A stretch of DNA of 64,000 nt from Ancylobacter sp. Lp-2. Its GTDB lineage: Bacteria; Pseudomonadota; Alphaproteobacteria; Rhizobiales; Xanthobacteraceae. The DNA is taken from positions 62,001-126,000 of the forward strand of contig NZ_JAJALI010000006.1 in assembly GCF_020523795.1 (NCBI RefSeq), written 5' to 3'. Positions 28,106-34,307 of this stretch are shown one piece after another. The translations under genes and the position numbers were made by a program. The notes under the pieces are model-generated. The model made no database searches, was not told the origin of the DNA, and saw nothing but the letters and a program-made list of their open reading frames with translations. Position 1 is the first letter of the stretch; every line of letters starts with the position of its first letter.

Positions 28106-28598
28106 GTGGGGACGGCGATCGTGGACTTATCGGATACGGCGTGCCGAGCCGCGAAGGGGCGAGAGAGCGAATACAAGCTCTCCGCTGGCGGTGGCTCTAT
28201 CTCCTGGTGAAGCCCAACGGCGCCCGATTGTGGAATCAGGCGTATCGGTTCGCGGGAAAGCATAAGAAGCTCTCCCATGGCCCCCATCCGATTGTGGCGC
28301 TCTCCGAAGCGCGGCGCCTTCGTGACGACGCCAAGAGGTCGTTGGCCTCAGGGGTCGATCCCGGAGCCAACAAGAAGGCGGAGAAGGTAGCCGCCGGCAG
28401 CATCCGAGAACACCTTCGGCGCCGGCGCCGACGAGCAGATCGAGAGAAGCACCAAGGAAGGTCGGGCAGACGCCACCCTGCAGAAGGCTGACTGGCTTCT
28501 CAGGACGATCGCCGCTCCCCTGACCAAGCGCCTATCCCGGACTTCACGCCCGTCGAGCTCTCCTAGACGTCCTGCGCGACGTGGAGGCCCTCTTCTAG
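28106..28598 (+). pseudogene. degenerate tRNA-type integrase (DUF4102 N-terminus), several frameshifts
   Basis: Three frames together spell the N-terminal part of a P4-type tyrosine integrase. The first reads LSDTACRAAKG...YKLSAGGG. After a one-base loss near 28190 the next reads LYLLVKPNGARLW, YRFAGKHKKLSHG and SEARRLRDDAKRSLASGVDP. From about 28400 a third reads NTFGAGADE, GRADATLQKADWLL and APLTKR, and a last scrap reads LDVLRDVEA. The catalytic C-terminal half is absent. It therefore cannot encode an active recombinase. Its place and orientation right after tRNA-Asn fit an old integration event. I found no copy of the tRNA 3' end further along that would mark a right attachment site. Confidence 0.85.
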
Positions 28599-28707
28599 GG
28601 TGAGAAACCCCGTGATCATCCGCCCGCCTATGCCGGCCGCCACATGGAAAAAACCGACACCCGTCATGCAGGGCGGGTACCGCGGCAGCGGGTTAGTCCA
28701 CTGGTGC

Positions 28708-29376
28708 CTATCGAGGCGCTCCATCGTCCCTCACACCTCCCGCCTGCGACATCTTTCGGCTGAAGATCGCCGCACCTCCCAGGAAGAGAACCGCCGTGCC
28801 GAGGTTCCATCCCAGGACCATCGCGGTCGCATCGAGTGGGTGGAACATCGAAAGAGCGGTCGCGGTGATGGCCGAGACGGCGAGACTCCCCATCAGGATG
28901 ACCGATGTCGGCCGCAGCGCCGCCGCATAGCGCAACATCGCCAGCATCAGCAGCGAAAGTGGCAGGCTGGTCAGGACCAGCGTGGCGAGGCAGCCGGAAG
29001 CGGCTTCGACCGTGATAGCGCCCGGCGGCACCGGCACCCAGCCGGCGAAGCACTGGTAGCCGATGGTCGACAGCCAGACGATAAGCGGCGGTGCCGGTAG
29101 GAGAAGCCATCCGCGCGACCGGTCAGGCAGGCTCACGAAGAAGGTGGCGATGGTCGCCAGGATGCCGGTCAGGAGCGACGAGATCATGTTGATGGCGAAC
29201 ACGGCATCTTGCATGCGCTCGGCAAATTGCGGCCGCACGCCATGGCTGATCGTCATCAGCCCCATGATCACAGCAGCGAGCAGGAGCCAGCCCAGAGCGC
29301 GAACCAGCGGCGGGCGAAGGCGTTTCACCGCGGGTGCGTTGGTGGCGAGCGAGCGGATCAGATCGGACGTGTCCAT
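28708..29376 (-). CDS. nrsF: NrsF-family anti-sigma factor (DUF1109), 222 aa
   Basis: A six-helix inner-membrane protein; hydrophobic segments lie at about residues 28-43, 62-82, 91-106, 125-148, 158-176 and 187-204. In Caulobacter NrsF holds the ECF factor SigF inactive, and two conserved cysteines are needed for release under chromate or cadmium stress. Cysteines occur here at positions 109 and 129. The start overlaps the sigma-gene stop (TGATG) with GGAGG upstream, so the pair is made together. The product begins MDTSDLIRSLATNA, the DUF1109 start. Confidence 0.85.
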   Translation of the reverse strand: MDTSDLIRSLATNAPAVKRLRPPLVRALGWLLLAAVIMGLMTISHGVRPQFAERMQDAVFAINMISSLLTGILATIATFFVSLPDRSRGWLLLPAPPLIVWLSTIGYQCFAGWVPVPPGAITVEAASGCLATLVLTSLPLSLLMLAMLRYAAALRPTSVILMGSLAVSAITATALSMFHPLDATAMVLGWNLGTAVLFLGGAAIFSRKMSQAGGVRDDGAPR

Positions 29377-30026
29377 CACCAATCCCTCCGGTCCGAAAGC
29401 AGGGACCGCAAATTCCGTAGCGCCCGATGGGTCGCCATTTTCAGCGACGCGATCGACAGTCCCGTCGCCTCGGAGGCTTCCTTCAGGGACATTTCCCTGA
29501 GCTTGAGCAGATCGATGGCGGTTCGCTGGATCGGGGGAAGGCCACCGAGAGCCTCCGTCAGCCCATCCTTGTCGAGCGCGTCATCGCGGCTGTCGGACGC
29601 GACGATGGTTGCCTCATGTTCGACGGTGAGCGGGGCCTCGCGCAACACCTGCCGGCCTCGCCGACGCAGGCGGTCAATGGCACGGCGATTGGCGATGCCG
29701 ACCAGCCAGGGACCGAACGGACGTGCGGGATCGTAGGTGTGCCGGATCGTATGAAGGGTCAGCAAGATGTCCTGCACGGTATCTTCGATATCCCAAGGGT
29801 CCTTGTGCCATCGCCTGACCAGTGACCTGAGATAGGGCGCGATCTCCTGAAGGAGGCGAAGATAGGCGACATTATCGCCGTCCTGCGCCCGCGCCATGAG
29901 AATCGACCAGTCGAGATCGCGGGAGGCCGCGGCCTCCGGTGACCGCGACGCGCTCTTGGCGTCCTCTCCGGTCGCTTCGCCCTCCGTGGCCACCAGCGTC
30001 AGGCGCCGCCGCCGGTCATGCTCCAT
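29376..30026 (-). CDS. sigF: ECF sigma factor, SigF type, 216 aa
   Basis: Region 2 is visible as YLRLLQEIAPYLRSLVRRW, then DIEDTVQDILLTLHTIRHTYDP, and ends PWLVGIANRRAIDRLRRRGR. Region 4 has LPPIQRTAIDLLKLREMSLKEASEATGLS and the recognition helix KMATHRALRNLR. Pairing with nrsF and the buf genes matches the Caulobacter SigF system. Start choice: GGAGG lies 7 bases upstream of the ATG giving MEHDRRRR, whereas upstream ATGs lack such a site. The chosen start codon lies inside a hairpin listed separately. Confidence 0.9.
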   Translation of the reverse strand: MEHDRRRRLTLVATEGEATGEDAKSASRSPEAAASRDLDWSILMARAQDGDNVAYLRLLQEIAPYLRSLVRRWHKDPWDIEDTVQDILLTLHTIRHTYDPARPFGPWLVGIANRRAIDRLRRRGRQVLREAPLTVEHEATIVASDSRDDALDKDGLTEALGGLPPIQRTAIDLLKLREMSLKEASEATGLSIASLKMATHRALRNLRSLLSDRRDW

Positions 30027-30047
30027 CTCGACACCTCCGCGAGATGG
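30023..30047 (-). promoter_or_regulatory. hairpin that pairs the sigF start codon and exposes its ribosome site in the loop
   Basis: On the transcript, CCAUCUCG pairs perfectly with CGAGAUGG across a 9-base loop CGGAGGUGU. The AUG of sigF is in the 3' arm and the GGAGG ribosome site is in the loop. This geometry would lower translation of the sigma factor unless opened. It is a reading of the sequence, not a tested element. Confidence 0.5.
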
Positions 30048-30098
30048 GGCATGCGCGTGCGCCATCGCTCCGGGGCCCGATATGGAGGCCACGGCGCA

Positions 30099-30611
30099 TC
30101 ATCGCGCCGCCTCTGGCGAATCCAATCGGACGTCACCCTTGGCGATCCAGTGGTCGATGGAGACGACACCGGGACCAATCGCGATGATGCTTAGGGCCAA
30201 AGCGGCCCAATACAGGTGGAAATTGGCCCAGCCATCGGGGAACACCAACTGGATCACGCCGGTCATGACCAATAGGCCGAGCGCGGCAAGGCGCGTTCCG
30301 AGGCCGACGATGAGCAGAATGGGCAGCACGATCTCGGCGGCCGCCGTCGCCAGCGCCAGCTGATCGGGCGCGGGAAACGCATACTCGCCGCCGAAGACAT
30401 GCAGCCTGAACTGCTCCTCGAACAGGAATTGCGTTCCCGCCGACAGGGACAGGAAGCCATCCCATCGCGTCAGGCCGGAACGGAGGAAGGGAAGCGCCAG
30501 GGCAACGCGCGACACCGGAGGTGCGAGGTGCCGCGCGACAGCTTCCATCTCGAGATATAGGTGACGGACCGTTGAAAACGTTTGGTTCCACACCGTTGGC
30601 GACGTGCTCAT
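30099..30611 (-). CDS. bufD: DoxX-family membrane protein (BufD-like), 170 aa
   Basis: A four-helix inner-membrane protein: about residues 30-45, 72-100, 105-122 and 130-150, with the DoxX features FLRSGLTRWDGF near the first helix and LPILLIVGLGTRLAALGLL. DoxX proteins accompany bufferin operons as the fourth gene and are thought to take part in redox chemistry. The start overlaps the bufC stop (ATGA) and has a GGAGGGGG ribosome site. Confidence 0.85.
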   Translation of the reverse strand: MSTSPTVWNQTFSTVRHLYLEMEAVARHLAPPVSRVALALPFLRSGLTRWDGFLSLSAGTQFLFEEQFRLHVFGGEYAFPAPDQLALATAAAEIVLPILLIVGLGTRLAALGLLVMTGVIQLVFPDGWANFHLYWAALALSIIAIGPGVVSIDHWIAKGDVRLDSPEAAR

Positions 30612-31462
30612 GCCGCCCCCTCCGAGCGTGCCGGCCGCACGTCGTAGCCGACGATCACGTTTGCCTCGATCATGCCTCGCAGCGCAATCGCGAGATCGAA
30701 GCACGGGCTGGCGAACAGCCCTTCCTTCATGGCTTCGACGATCGGCGCCCCCGCCCGCAGTGCTTCCATGAAGGCGGCAGCGCCCGCCGGAAGACGCCGG
30801 ATCTCGACCTCTGTCTCGGGCCGGGCGACGAGCGCGTCTTCTCCACCCGCATCGAGAGCGACGGTCCCGGCATCGTCGCCCCCCACATTTGCCTGCCAGA
30901 TGCTCACGATCGGAAAGGCCGACCGGACGATGCGGACGGTGGGGTGGAGCGTCAGTCGCATTGTCAGGACATCGCCCGGCGGCACCTGGCCGAGAGCGGA
31001 GGGTGACAGCGGCGAGGCTTCGGCCGCGTGATAGGCCTCCACCCACGCCCGCTCAAGACGCGCGACATCGGGGAGGTAGGCAAGCACGGCGGCGGGCTCG
31101 AAGCGGGCGATGAAGGCGGGAAAGCCGGCCCCATAGTCGAGCATGATCGGAGATACCGGGGGCTCCGCCACGACATGGAGGCTTGCCATGGCGGCGAAGA
31201 ATTCCTCGCCGACCAGGCGACGGGCCACCGGATAGGCCGCCTTCAGCGTCTCGATCAGCCCGACGACGACATTGTTTCGGTAGACCGCGAAGCGCCTCTC
31301 GCTGGGCCGCCCGTCGGGACCGACCAGGCCGGCCGGCGCTGGCCTGACCGGATCGAGGATCGCACGAGCGAAGTCAGCCTGTCGGGCGGCGAACCCGTGC
31401 ATGACGGAAGCCTGCTCGCTGCCTTCAAGAGAAAACACCGGGATGCCGGTCGCCCCGATCAT
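30608..31462 (-). CDS. bufC: DUF2063 protein (BufC-like MNIO partner), 284 aa
   Basis: It has the DUF2063 core: RRFAVYRNNVVVGLIETLK, AYPVARRLVGEEFFAAMA and YLPDVARLERAWVEAYHA. In bufferin systems BufC is the partner that brings the precursor peptide to the MNIO enzyme BufB. I chose the ATG that overlaps the preceding stop (ATGA). An ATG 60 bp further in, giving MHGFAARQADFARAIL, is where the conserved domain begins. Confidence 0.88.
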   Translation of the reverse strand: MIGATGIPVFSLEGSEQASVMHGFAARQADFARAILDPVRPAPAGLVGPDGRPSERRFAVYRNNVVVGLIETLKAAYPVARRLVGEEFFAAMASLHVVAEPPVSPIMLDYGAGFPAFIARFEPAAVLAYLPDVARLERAWVEAYHAAEASPLSPSALGQVPPGDVLTMRLTLHPTVRIVRSAFPIVSIWQANVGGDDAGTVALDAGGEDALVARPETEVEIRRLPAGAAAFMEALRAGAPIVEAMKEGLFASPCFDLAIALRGMIEANVIVGYDVRPARSEGAA

Positions 31463-32448
31463 CGATGCCTCTCTCGACCGGGACGCCCGACCACATTGGT
31501 CCAGAAGGTTCGGAGGCTGTCGACGCCGCCGGCCGTCGAACTCCACAGGGTCGCGTCGCCGACCAGCAAGGTGCCAGCGAACGCATCCGGTTTCGATTGC
31601 AGCAAGGCATCGAAGGTCGCGCGGCCGCCGGCCGTGAAGGGATGGGGCGGAGCCGCGAGATCGATCTTCTGGCGCGCCAGCACGTCGAGCGTCGCGACGG
31701 CCCCGGCCATGCGCTCGAAATGCGGCAGATGCGCATGAAGATTGAAGGTGGGAACGCCCGAAAGCAGGTGGAAACGATCGAGAGACACGTCCACGTCGAT
31801 CGGCGACGGGGTGCCATCCGGCTCGGCGGCGGGACGCAATCCGAACCGGTTTTCGACCGGAATACCCAGACCGGCGAGCAACGAACGTCCGAACCCGCCA
31901 AATCCCTGTCGCGGCGGGATGGTCTTATCGCCGTGATGCAGGAAATCCGCAACCTGCCGGGCGACGAACTCCTCATGCGAATCCGGCTCCTCCTCGCCGA
32001 TGTCGTGATGGGGGCCGACGAACAGCAGGTGATCCGGCACGGAAAGGAAGGAGCGGACGAAATCGACCTCGGCCGGACTTGCCTGCTGCCGGGTTCGCAG
32101 GGAATCGAAGCTGATGACGATCAGCGTATCGATGTCTTCGAGCGCTTCCCGCGCCAGCGGCACGAGCCGGCCATCGCCGCCGACGCGCTCGATCTCCACG
32201 ACCGGATGCCCGGTGATCGCCTCTCCGAGCTTCACGAACGCGGCGAAATTCTGCCTCATGATGTGATCGAGAAAACCGGCGATACCCTGGTCGAAGCGCG
32301 ACGGATCGCTCAGTTCCTCGAAGCGCGGATACAGCATGCGGCGGCTTTCGAAGAGCGCTGGAAACCGGTTCTCGATGACATCGAGCGGCACTCCAGTCTC
32401 TTCCGGCCGGCTCCAGGCATAATAGACGGCAACTCTGCGCGCCGGCAT
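31459..32448 (-). CDS. unrecognised 329-aa protein inserted in the bufferin operon
   Basis: I do not recognise a family. The protein looks soluble: no signal peptide and no membrane helix. It begins MPARRVAVYYAWSRPEE. Notable stretches are a beta-strand followed by Asp (DIDTLIVISFDSLR near residue 103), LLFVGPHHDIGEEE near residue 140, FLHHGDKTIPPRQGFGGFG near residue 170, and FNLHAHLPHFERM near residue 243, so histidines and acidic residues cluster at possible metal sites. The alternating strand-helix start could be a Rossmann-like or glutamine-amidotransferase-like fold. It starts 17 bp after bufB with a GGAGGA site, and its stop overlaps the bufC start. It is thus an integral operon member, likely acting on the bufferin peptide, its metal or its processing. 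Confidence 0.8.
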   Translation of the reverse strand: MPARRVAVYYAWSRPEETGVPLDVIENRFPALFESRRMLYPRFEELSDPSRFDQGIAGFLDHIMRQNFAAFVKLGEAITGHPVVEIERVGGDGRLVPLAREALEDIDTLIVISFDSLRTRQQASPAEVDFVRSFLSVPDHLLFVGPHHDIGEEEPDSHEEFVARQVADFLHHGDKTIPPRQGFGGFGRSLLAGLGIPVENRFGLRPAAEPDGTPSPIDVDVSLDRFHLLSGVPTFNLHAHLPHFERMAGAVATLDVLARQKIDLAAPPHPFTAGGRATFDALLQSKPDAFAGTLLVGDATLWSSTAGGVDSLRTFWTNVVGRPGRERHR

Positions 32449-32465
32449 GCGATCTTCCTCCGGGT

Positions 32466-33365
32466 TCAGTGTGCGTGGTTCAGGGCCGGCGTGCGTCGCC
32501 GCCCGCCGTCAATGTCGGCCATGAGGCGTTCCGCACGCTCCGCTTCGGCCTTCAGCACCGGCCAATCGGGCACGTTGGCGTCCCACTCGATCAGGGTCGG
32601 GACCGGGCCGATCCGCTCGATGGTGTGGGCGAACAGCCCCCAGACGGTTTCGTCGACCGGGCGATCATGGGCATCGATCAGCAAGGGACGGCCTTCTTCA
32701 TCGGCATCGGGCGCGAAGCCCGCCAGATGGATCTCCTGCACGTGGGAGAGCGGGTAGGCATCGAGATAGGCGATCGGGTCCCAGTCCTGATTGGTACAGG
32801 CGACGTGGACATTGTTGACATCGAGCAGGAGGCAGCACCCGGTCCGGCGCGCGATCTCGGCTATGAAGTCGGTCTCGCCCCATGTGTTCTCGGCGAACGC
32901 CAGATAGGTGGACGGATTCTCCAGCAGCATCCGGCGCCCGAGCGCCTCCTGCACCTGATCGACATGCTCGACAACGCGCGCCAGGGTCTCATTCGTGTAG
33001 GGCAGAGGAAGCAGGTCGTTCAGGAAACCGGCCTCGTGGCTCGACCAGGCAAGGTGCTCGGAGAACAGCTCCGGCGAATAGCGCTCGACCAACTGCCTCA
33101 GGCGGGCCAGATGATCGCTGTCGAGGGGCCGGTCTGCGCCGATAGACAGCCCGACGCCGTGCAGCGACAGCGGATAGCGTTCGCGGATGGCGGACAGGTA
33201 GCGATGCGGAGGCCCGCCGGCGCCCATGTAGTTCTCGGCATGGACCTCGAAGAAACCGATATCGGGCGACGTCTCCAGGATCGTCGTGTAGTGCTCGGCC
33301 TTCAGACCGACGCCGGCTCGCCTCGGCATGGAGGTCGGGGAAAGCTTCGAAGCCACTTCCGGCAT
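32466..33365 (-). CDS. bufB: DUF692 multinuclear non-heme iron oxidative enzyme (BufB-like), 299 aa
   Basis: MNIO enzymes are TIM-barrel iron oxidases that modify cysteines of precursor peptides; BufB makes thiooxazoles in bufferins. Family motifs include FFEVHAENYMG, SLHGVGLSIG, SEHLAWSSH, LLENPSTYLAF, LLDVNNVHVAC, EIHLAGF and LIEWDANVP, which supply the His/Glu/Asp metal ligands in the family. The start is the ATG giving MPEVASKL, with GAGGTG upstream; an ATG 21 bp earlier is less well placed. A hairpin separates it from the precursor gene. Confidence 0.93.
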   Translation of the reverse strand: MPEVASKLSPTSMPRRAGVGLKAEHYTTILETSPDIGFFEVHAENYMGAGGPPHRYLSAIRERYPLSLHGVGLSIGADRPLDSDHLARLRQLVERYSPELFSEHLAWSSHEAGFLNDLLPLPYTNETLARVVEHVDQVQEALGRRMLLENPSTYLAFAENTWGETDFIAEIARRTGCCLLLDVNNVHVACTNQDWDPIAYLDAYPLSHVQEIHLAGFAPDADEEGRPLLIDAHDRPVDETVWGLFAHTIERIGPVPTLIEWDANVPDWPVLKAEAERAERLMADIDGGRRRTPALNHAH

Positions 33366-33396
33366 GATGTTCACCTCGGACGACACTGAGGGAAAT

Positions 33397-33420
33397 GGCC
33401 GGGCCCTTGCGGACCCGGCC
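33397..33420 (-). terminator. intercistronic hairpin between bufA and bufB
   Basis: The minus-strand RNA folds GGCCGGGUCC with GGGCCCGGCC around a GCAA tetraloop: ten pairs with one G-U. AUUUCCC follows, not a long U-run. It lies 10 bp after the bufA stop. It may reduce read-through or protect bufA mRNA so that more peptide than enzyme is made. Confidence 0.6.
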
Positions 33421-33430
33421 GAGTGGTCGA

Positions 33431-33763
33431 TCAGGCCTTGGGCTTGAGGCTGCCCATGCCGTTCGGCGTGGAGATCGCCGTGCAGGTGCCGGTCGGCACC
33501 AGCTTGAAGGCGTTGCCCTGGTAGTCGGTGGTGCTAGTGCCCGCGCAGGTGGTGCCGGCACCGGCGTAGCAGTCGTTCTGCCCCTTGAGCGCGACGCCGA
33601 AGCAGGGCTGGACCGCGCCGGACTTCACCTTCACGGTGTTCTCGGCCTGGGTCTTCTTCTGCTGCGCCGTGAACTCCTGCGCATTCGCCGGAACGACGGC
33701 GAGAGTACCGAAGGCGGCGGCGAAGGCGCCGGCAACCAGAGTGGACATCAGACGATCGGACAT
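33431..33763 (-). CDS. bufA: bufferin-type precursor peptide (DUF2282), 110 aa
   Basis: A small secreted protein with a signal peptide ([14 protein letters not shown] ... VPANA, cut before Q29 or so) and four cysteines at 54, 65, 73 and 94 in [24 protein letters not shown] and PTGTCTA. This is the DUF2282 pattern of BufA1, whose modified cysteines bind copper in the periplasm. AGGAGA lies 7 bases before the ATG. It is first in the operon and has the SigF-like promoter. The unmodified product alone would not be expected to chelate in the same way. Confidence 0.9.
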
Positions 33764-33843
33764 ATTGGTTCTCCTGAAAATTGGGCCCGCAAGCCTCTTG
33801 CTGCTGGCGAGTGGCGGCGGTTTTCGTCGCGCCTGTAGAGTGG

Positions 33844-33869
33844 TTCGTCGGGGGATCCTCCGAGGTCAC
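33844..33869 (-). promoter_or_regulatory. SigF-like promoter of the bufferin operon
   Basis: Read on the minus strand, GTGACC is followed after exactly 16 bp by CGAA. The motif published for Caulobacter SigF, from memory, is GTAACC-N16-CGAA, so this differs by one base. The bufA start is about 80 bp downstream of the -10 element. Confidence 0.6.
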
Positions 33870-33921
33870 TCTGCTTCGGAGAAATTTTCGGCGGCCACTT
33901 GGGATCGCTATCCCGTCTTGC

Positions 33922-34230
33922 TCAAGCGGCGGGTTTGGAGGCGACCACTGCACTCGGATGCAGTTCCGGTTCGACCGCCAACAGTTCGGGCACGGTGGCG
34001 AAGATCTGGCTCGCCGCGCTGCCGGACATGTGGGTGTCGAGGCTTGCCTCGCTGTCGAACAGGTCGACGAGGAAGATCTTGTCGACGTCCGTATGCGATC
34101 GCAGCACAAGCCAGAGCGTCGTGCCCGCCTCCGCCTCCACTGCCGGCAGTGCGTCCGCGATCCGCCTGGCGGCCTCCTCACCCAGGCCCGGCCTGGCCTT
34201 GAACACGACGACACCTGCTATTCTTGTCAT
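33922..34230 (-). CDS. antibiotic-biosynthesis-monooxygenase-fold (ABM) protein, 102 aa
   Basis: A small ferredoxin-like alpha/beta protein beginning MTRIAGVVVFKARPG, with AAGTTLWLVLRSHTD and FLVDLFDSEASLDTHM, the ABM/quinol monooxygenase pattern. Such proteins oxidise quinols or detoxify electrophiles. The start is the ATG with GAGGA upstream rather than the longer frame. It faces the GlxA-type gene and lies upstream of the bufferin promoter, so it is not part of that operon by position. Confidence 0.8.
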   Translation of the reverse strand: MTRIAGVVVFKARPGLGEEAARRIADALPAVEAEAGTTLWLVLRSHTDVDKIFLVDLFDSEASLDTHMSGSAASQIFATVPELLAVEPELHPSAVVASKPAA

Positions 34231-34307
34231 GGATGCAATCCTCTCTGTCGCTTGGACTGCGCGGCTATTGGGCCTCGCCAATGGAGGTTCGCCGCGAGGC
34301 CCGCAGA

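What the first reader, a model, noticed from the sequence alone, without database searches (positions are those of the whole stretch)
31459..32448. Unrecognised gene inserted between bufB and bufC of a bufferin operon
Seen: a 329-aa frame with a GGAGGA ribosome site, 17 bp after bufB and overlapping the bufC start (ATGA), so it is a coding member of the operon. Known: characterised bufferin loci have precursor, MNIO enzyme, DUF2063 partner and DoxX in this order without such a gene. Inference: a new accessory step in making, exporting or sensing a metal-binding peptide. The His and acidic clusters (HHD, HHGD, HAHLPHFE) suggest a metal enzyme.
Basis: partly seen in the sequence, partly recalled or inferred. 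Interest (0 to 1): 0.8.

Follow-up and report, generated by a model that had tools for sequence, protein, structure and literature searches.

The report
Extra gene in a bufferin operon
A copper-stress peptide operon carries an extra gene of unknown function; the gene has been noticed in print before, but here it turns out to travel with one special form of the peptide and to have relatives beside peroxidase genes.

Summary
Window 31459-32448 (-) encodes a 329-aa protein ("X") 17 nt after bufB, overlapping bufC by ATGA, in a full Buf1 operon. X has no family match but 1,906 relatives. In 32 of 37 genome loci it sits in a buf operon (one is a remnant). It is not wholly unrecognised: PMC12452194 (section 18) describes "adjamnio-VI" proteins encoded at this position, function unknown.

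Added here: (1) a predicted class-I glutamine-amidotransferase-like fold, with seven invariant His and no invariant Cys. (2) X travels with one BufA subtype, marked by an N-terminal extension (FTxAQKKIQAEHTxLVKSGKVEPC): 18 of 18 and 4 of 4 subtype-bearing genomes of two genera have X. Five operons without X have an alignable but Met-rich extension. (3) Relatives of about 40% identity sit beside DyP peroxidases in Nostoc and Streptomyces.

Against a bufferin role: three genomes have X-family genes but no MNIO enzyme, and X is a remnant in one otherwise open operon. Best guess: a metal-binding accessory factor for this bufferin subtype (0.4); chief rival: a separate stress enzyme (0.35).

The parts
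31459..32448 (-). gene X (329 aa), predicted class-I GATase-like fold, conserved His/Asp motifs; matches 'adjamnio-VI' by position
   Evidence: PMC12452194 section 18
32466..33386 (-). bufB, MNIO bufferin maturase (ORF from first GTG; the family match starts at residue 24, so the true start may lie later)
   Evidence: NF050167 MNIO_BufB 394.2 bits over cut-off 310; PF05114 360 bits
33431..33763 (-). bufA1, DUF2282 bufferin precursor (110 aa): signal peptide-like start (by eye), 4 Cys, N-terminal extension [24 protein letters not shown] before the first Cys, Tyr after the second Cys
   Evidence: PF10048 78 bits
30608..31462 (-). bufC, DUF2063 partner protein (284 aa), start overlaps the X stop (ATGA)
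   Evidence: PF09836 89.4 bits
30099..30611 (-). doxX, start overlaps the bufC stop (ATGA)
   Evidence: PF07681 53.6 bits (translated from 30614); start read
29376..30032 (-). ECF sigma factor of the buf1 operon (start uncertain)
   Evidence: PF04542 and PF08281
28708..29382 (-). nrsF-type anti-sigma factor (start uncertain)
   Evidence: PF06532 NrsF 86.9 bits
33922..34233 (-). ABM-type (antibiotic biosynthesis monooxygenase) small protein upstream of bufA, same strand; found upstream of bufA in 7 of the 8 alphaproteobacterial X+ loci
   Evidence: PF03992 26.8 bits over cut-off 23.1

Best explanation
X is an accessory factor of one subtype of Buf1 bufferin operon. SHOWN: it is an operonic gene, it belongs to a large unnamed family, and it is co-inherited with bufferins that carry a particular N-terminal extension. 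PREDICTED: a class-I glutamine-amidotransferase-like fold. INFERRED: it is cytosolic (no signal peptide seen by eye). INFERRED: the invariant His/Asp residues, which fall mainly in loops that follow core strands, form a metal site in place of the amidotransferase Cys. INFERRED: before Sec export, X acts on or binds the extended BufA1 together with BufB-BufC, as a tailoring or hydrolytic enzyme or as a metal-handling partner, in a lineage whose sister operons use a Met-rich extension instead.
Against: Three genomes with X-family genes have no MNIO (PF05114) match: G785 and G787, with orphan copies of the buf-type X (G787 is a MAG), and G429, with the more distant type. R. leguminosarum L037 and L145 keep only an X remnant while the other buf genes are open and the BufA motif is kept. 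Relatives of ~40% identity lie in DyP cassettes without a bufferin seen nearby. Six orphan X genes lie among the buf-linked X rows. Two of three orphan-X genomes that do have an MNIO (G786, G788) showed no X-type BufA in the loci read. Being Met-free is not by itself special: other X- BufAs have different, mostly Met-free N-terminal stretches of PLTKAE type (L073, L097, L106; 6 of 12 second-tier loci), so the link is to the QKKIQA motif. Co-inheritance in one operon needs no physical contact. No metal, substrate or product has been seen. The second X model has mean pLDDT 55-69 over residues 21-50 and 67 over 171-180, which holds the HHGD motif.
Confidence: 0.4

Rival explanations
1. X is a self-sufficient cytosolic enzyme for a metal- or peroxide-linked metabolite. 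It joined the buf1 operon for co-regulation and does not touch the bufferin.
For: Relatives in Nostoc and Streptomyces lie with a DyP-type peroxidase and a ~180-aa unnamed protein. Distant relatives of that ~180-aa protein sit with a peroxidase and a gene annotated as catalase family in Sphingomonas, Deinococcus and R. rosettiformans. Orphan X copies persist, and three genomes with X-family genes have no MNIO match. X is a remnant in L037 and L145 with the rest open.
Against: It does not by itself explain why X follows the BufA subtype so closely in two genera, also when unlinked in G784. The cassette is not universal: L048 shows no peroxidase gene beside X and L044 has a decarboxylase.
Confidence: 0.35
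2. X is a maturation or scaffold protein for BufB-BufC (for example loading iron into the MNIO enzyme, or holding the precursor), not an enzyme on the peptide.
For: It lies between the genes of the two partner proteins; bufB and X overlap by 4 nt in 11 of 31 loci. Its His/Asp conservation suits metal binding. The nearest folds include the IFT52 N-terminal domain and chains of oligosaccharyltransferase complexes, non-enzymatic as far as I recall.
Against: Most BufB enzymes do without it: 110 of 398 phylum-sample genomes have BufB over the cut-off, and of these only the window's own has X.
Confidence: 0.15
3. X is a passenger without a role in bufferin biology, kept by operon linkage.
For: Remnants exist (L037, L145); neighbouring BufB lineages lack it.
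Against: 54 invariant columns down to 36% identity; kept in five proteobacterial families (labels) with patchy occurrence; the BufA subtype goes with it.
Confidence: 0.05

Closest known systems
adjamnio-VI proteins (Antoine et al. 2025, PMC12452194)
   Same: Gene between the MNIO and PME-type 1 genes of otherwise classical buf1 operons; no Pfam signature; function unknown, authors suggest possible extra modification enzymes
   Different: The main text has no occurrence of amidotransferase, ThuA, extension, peroxidase, Met-rich or methionine, so no fold, BufA subtype or peroxidase link is given there. Their supplementary alignment could not be compared.
ThuA-like / class-I glutamine amidotransferase-like fold (1t0b, 4e5v, IFT52 5fms, 8b6l chain N)
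   Different: No sequence match in Pfam, NCBIfam or PDB sequences beyond chance; no invariant Cys; own His/Asp motifs; identity 6-10%
DyP-peroxidase cassette of Nostoc and Streptomyces plasmids
   Same: Contains a 36-41% identical X homologue that shares the 54 invariant residues
   Different: Partners are a DyP peroxidase and a ~180-aa unnamed protein, not a bufferin
Standard Buf1 bufferin operon (Caulobacter type)
   Same: bufA-bufB-bufC-doxX core, here with sigma and NrsF
   Different: The standard operon lacks X. The window's own genome has a second BufB at G000:C11 whose BufA lacks the extension and where no X was found

Membership tests
Buf1 bufferin operon | DUF2282 precursor with signal-like N-terminus and four Cys | tested here: met
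   PF10048 78 bits; four Cys in the sequence; signal peptide judged by eye
Buf1 bufferin operon | MNIO_BufB over the curated cut-off | tested here: met
   394.2 bits against 310
Buf1 bufferin operon | DUF2063 (PME-type 1) partner and DoxX | tested here: met
   PF09836 and PF07681 over cut-off
Buf1 bufferin operon | thiooxazole product that binds copper | not testable with these tools
   needs biochemistry
adjamnio-VI | gene between the MNIO and PME-type 1 genes of a buf1 operon | tested here: met
   definition
adjamnio-VI | no Pfam signature | tested here: met
   0 families at E<=1
adjamnio-VI | sequence match to the published cluster VI alignment (Fig. S3) | not testable with these tools
ThuA family | match to a ThuA profile | tested here: not met
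   no Pfam match and one chance NCBIfam hit (E 0.24) at E<=1; no ThuA among the 11 Pfam families matched by any of 53 relatives at E<=5
ThuA family | GATase1-like fold | tested here: met
class-I glutamine amidotransferase | conserved nucleophile Cys | tested here: not met
   no Cys among the invariant or nearly invariant columns of 53 sequences; HHD follows strand 141-146
DUF4350 | Pfam PF14258 match | tested here: inconclusive
   3 of 53 members, best E 0.022, window protein none
known anti-phage systems | PADLOC model match | tested here: not met
   0 at E<=0.1

The most novel reading that the evidence does not exclude
X and the QKKIQA-type N-terminal extension of its bufferin form a lock-and-key pair: X is a third maturation component that installs, trims or metal-loads something on the extension. 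The lineage has thereby swapped a Met-rich, presumably Cu(I)-binding, N-terminus for an X-dependent one, giving bufferins a second functional module besides the thiooxazoles.
Probability: 0.12. Interest if true: 0.7.

Novelty: new variant of a known kind. Interest (0 to 1): 0.5.

Why it matters
Bufferins are described as large RiPP families with a four-gene core in which additional conserved genes are extremely rare (PMC12452194 section 14). A branch with an extra conserved protein and a co-inherited precursor subtype offers a compact, testable case of how these metal-binding peptides gain extra functions. It also gives a starting point (fold, conserved residues, X+ and X- neighbour operons) for a family that has a name but no proposed mechanism.

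Tried and rejected
Sequence-level filing of X failed: Pfam, NCBIfam, PADLOC, PDB sequences and a profile of 53 relatives gave nothing beyond chance. A profile search of viral contigs found no relative. The Tyr after the second Cys of BufA was first taken as an X-linked mark, then dropped: L053, L085, L115 and L141 have it without X, while L112 (X-) and L147 (X+) have Phe. 'Met-free extension' alone was dropped as the mark of X: PLTKAE-type, mostly Met-free N-termini occur in X- BufAs. Two more X- BufAs have long, unlike N-termini with some Met (one of two in L127; L158 of genome G784); they are not among the five Met-rich ones, which I chose because they align with the X-type extension. Direction of change (X gained with loss of Met, or the reverse) could not be settled: four Met-rich operons form a clade (94/87) beside most X+ rows, but the Dyella, L154 and L085 rows are unresolved, and L053 lies among X+ rows.

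Samples: the 56 X- loci are those returned as loci, not a random draw; 7 of them had no DUF2282-type BufA detected, hence 49. L019 has no visible BufA (contig edge). L037, L031 and L023 were left out, and L031. Of the order sample (216 of 397 genomes with a match) only the 30 loci returned were examined for X; only the window's own had it. Match lists are capped; the X-type matches stand at the top (184-227 bits, next 88.5). Of 8 plasmid records with buf-type X over most of the query (H1-H8), two Caballeronia ones had no BufA match in the listed rows; one was opened (L146) and has X without buf genes within 4 kb, the other was not opened. The X-bufC distances printed depend on poorly chosen start codons and were not used. 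The 'pdb_via' list re-ranks Foldseek hits only, so other folds are not excluded. Paper search matched the word buffering and was useless; searches for ThuA with zinc and for DyP with catalase-related allene oxide returned nothing. No sigma-70 promoter was found in 28500-34300; ECF promoters were not tested.

Full report
OBSERVATION. The 329-aa frame at 31459-32448 (-) is real and placed as described. In one search the bufB stop and the X start are 17 nt apart, GGAGGA precedes the ATG by 7 nt, and the X stop overlaps the bufC start as ATGA. Flanking genes were confirmed with profiles: BufA DUF2282 78 bits, BufC DUF2063 89 bits, DoxX 54 bits, sigma factor and NrsF, and MNIO_BufB 394 bits over a cut-off of 310. 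The doxX start also overlaps the bufC stop as ATGA.

WHAT X IS BY SEQUENCE. X has no Pfam match at E<=1, one chance NCBIfam hit at E 0.24, no PDB sequence match at E<=10 and no PADLOC match. It has 1,906 relatives at E<=1e-3 among the 7,999 candidates scored; of the 120 listed, those with a name are called hypothetical protein. A Nostoc relative as query gave 5,875 among 7,439 candidates.

PRIOR ART. Of PMC12452194 I saw the outline and abstract, sections 14, 18 and 21 in full and passages. [quoted passage not shown] section 14 says that additional conserved genes are found in extremely low proportions, which agrees with the rarity found here. X fits adjamnio-VI by position and by lack of a Pfam signature; its identity with that cluster is inferred, since the supplementary alignment could not be opened. 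The word adjamnio occurs in that one paper of the library only. Searches on bufferins, MNIO, DUF692, DUF2063, DUF2282 and related words listed no other paper whose listing points to this gene; of PMC13097082 I saw passages only, of the others the listing only.

DISTRIBUTION. A scan of genome contigs with alignment A1 gave 37 loci. Homology to the window's own genes places X next to bufB and bufC in 32 of 37; L037 among these has only a remnant of X, and L019 starts at a contig edge so that bufA is not seen. By the labels the hosts are Xanthobacteraceae, Rhizobiaceae, Burkholderiaceae, Rhodanobacteraceae and Pseudomonadaceae. L018, L021, L022, L030 and L033 have X without buf genes in the stretch held. 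In the 31 loci with intact X the bufB-X spacing is -8 to +54 nt, with a 4-nt overlap in 11. X is rare: 2 of 61 near relatives, the window's genome included, while 38 of 61 have BufB over the cut-off. In a phylum sample 2 of 398 genomes have X and 110 of 398 have BufB over the cut-off. Of those two X genomes one is the window's own and the other (G429) has no MNIO match. The window's genome has a second BufB at G000:C11, where BufA lacks the extension, and only one X in all.

COUPLING TO A BUFFERIN SUBTYPE. BufAs from X+ operons (32 sequences, the window included, L037 with its remnant included) all carry about 24 residues between signal peptide and first Cys, typically EFTAAQKKIQAEHTALVKSGKVEP. 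47 of 49 BufAs from X- operons have a gap at the core of this stretch. The two exceptions, L053 and L085, plus L112 and L115 and the Nitrobacter plasmid locus L141, have an alignable but Met-rich extension, for example MTKEQMMKKQEMTKKEVKSGKMEM. In the 24 residues before the first Cys, 33 of 33 X+ BufAs have no Met and these five have 5, 6, 6, 6 and 6. Two limits apply. The five were chosen because they align. And X- BufAs can have other N-terminal stretches: a PLTKAE type, mostly Met-free, in L073, L097 and L106 and in 6 of 12 second-tier loci, and unlike long ones in L127 and L158. So the mark of X is the QKKIQA-type motif, not the mere presence of an extension or the absence of Met.

FURTHER TESTS OF THE COUPLING. 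In the genus of P. xenovorans 19 of 144 genomes have X, and 18 of 144 have a BufA matching the X-type at 184-227 bits, with the next match at 88.5 bits. All 18 are among the 19. One search read the motif in all 18 loci (0 Met each, X homologue present in each) and found neither X nor the motif in the 12 second-tier loci fetched. The exception is G785, with orphan X, no BufA match and no MNIO match. In a Dyella genus X and X-type BufA occur in the same 4 of 20 genomes (motif). In plasmids, all 6 records with a BufA match covering at least 80% of the query also hold X or a remnant; conversely, two Caballeronia plasmids with X showed no BufA match in the listed rows, and the one opened (L146) has X alone. 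In Variovorax genome G784 X is unlinked (L018), yet a buf operon without X elsewhere has the X-type BufA (L154). Against this, orphan-X genomes G786 and G788 showed no X-type BufA in the loci read. Because these organisms share ancestry and operons move as units, the counts are not independent events. BufB trees put X+ rows mostly together, with the Met-rich rows among or beside them, and distance matrices correlate (r 0.76-0.90, 28 loci), so linkage alone could produce much of the pattern; the unlinked G784 case is the only one I have that linkage does not explain.

RELATIVES OUTSIDE BUF OPERONS. Plasmid hits at 37-45% identity were opened, six of the eight Nostoc and Streptomyces records and one Rhizobium. 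In Nostoc (L042, L043, L047) the order is ~180-aa protein, DyP-type peroxidase, X homologue; in Streptomyces L041 and L046 it is ~180-aa protein, X homologue, peroxidase, and L045 looks alike though its record is not annotated. The peroxidase scores 91.7 bits in L042 and 113.3 in L041 to TIGR01413 (cut-off 100.5), and its PDB relatives include an ancestral D-type DyP. Relatives of the ~180-aa protein at 68% identity or more occur in 8 plasmid records, the same Nostoc and Streptomyces records that carry X homologues. Its distant relatives (24-31%) lie beside a peroxidase and a gene annotated as catalase family in the three records opened, L142, L143 and L144; only the one in L144 passes Pfam's catalase cut-off. 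In R. leguminosarum pSK02 (L044) the homologue follows a tyrosine-decarboxylase-like gene. In genome G429 (L048) it follows a protein that resembles the ~180-aa one by eye, with no peroxidase beside it. In the unrooted X tree the 16 outside rows form one side of a branch (100/99) and the six orphans lie among the buf-linked rows, L022 and L033 possibly at their base.

MECHANISM. Shown: operonic gene, family, co-inheritance with a BufA subtype. Predicted: fold. Inferred: cytosolic location (no signal peptide apparent by eye; not computed), metal site, action on extended BufA. The best explanation is an accessory maturation or metal-handling factor for the extended bufferin (0.4). The chief rival is a separate stress enzyme that shares regulation (0.35), which the orphan copies, MNIO-free genomes and peroxidase cassettes favour. 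That Met-rich stretches bind Cu(I) is general knowledge recalled, not tested here.

VERDICT. The gene is real, conserved and unexplained; its presence in buf operons is already in print. The coupling to a bufferin subtype, the predicted fold and the peroxidase-linked relatives appear to be additions, as far as the searches named above can show.

Noticed in passing
window 33922-34233 (-) and loci L001, L011, L024, L028, L031, L034, L037: An ABM-type small protein gene lies upstream of bufA in 7 of 8 alphaproteobacterial X+ loci (L006, with a short contig, is the exception). The ~180-aa protein beside X homologues in Nostoc and Streptomyces looks, by eye, like a similar dimeric alpha/beta barrel.
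   Followed up: partly
L001, L006, L011, L024, L028, L031, L034, L037 against the other 24 X+ loci: Sigma factor and NrsF genes follow doxX in all 8 alphaproteobacterial X+ loci and were found in none of the other 24 (some contigs are short).
   Followed up: no
L041, L042, L043, L046, L047, L142, L143, L144: A peroxidase module (DyP plus ~180-aa unnamed protein) has an X homologue in Nostoc and Streptomyces and a gene annotated as catalase family in the Sphingomonas, Deinococcus and R. rosettiformans records opened.
   Followed up: partly
L037, L145, L148: R. leguminosarum loci keep the buf operon with X reduced to a remnant (L037, L145); in L148 several genes of the operon are split between frames, perhaps sequencing error.
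   Followed up: partly
L113, L114, L116, L117, L118, L127: Several buf operons of the window's order have two different DUF2282 precursors before bufB.
   Followed up: no
L053, L085, L112, L115, L141: Buf1 precursors with a Met-rich N-terminal extension (5-6 Met in 24 residues), in operons without X; possibly an additional Cu(I) site.
   Followed up: partly
L073, L097, L106, L189, L191, L194, L195, L196, L198: Another Buf1 precursor type with a PLTKAE-like N-terminal stretch before the first Cys, in operons where no X was found.
   Followed up: no
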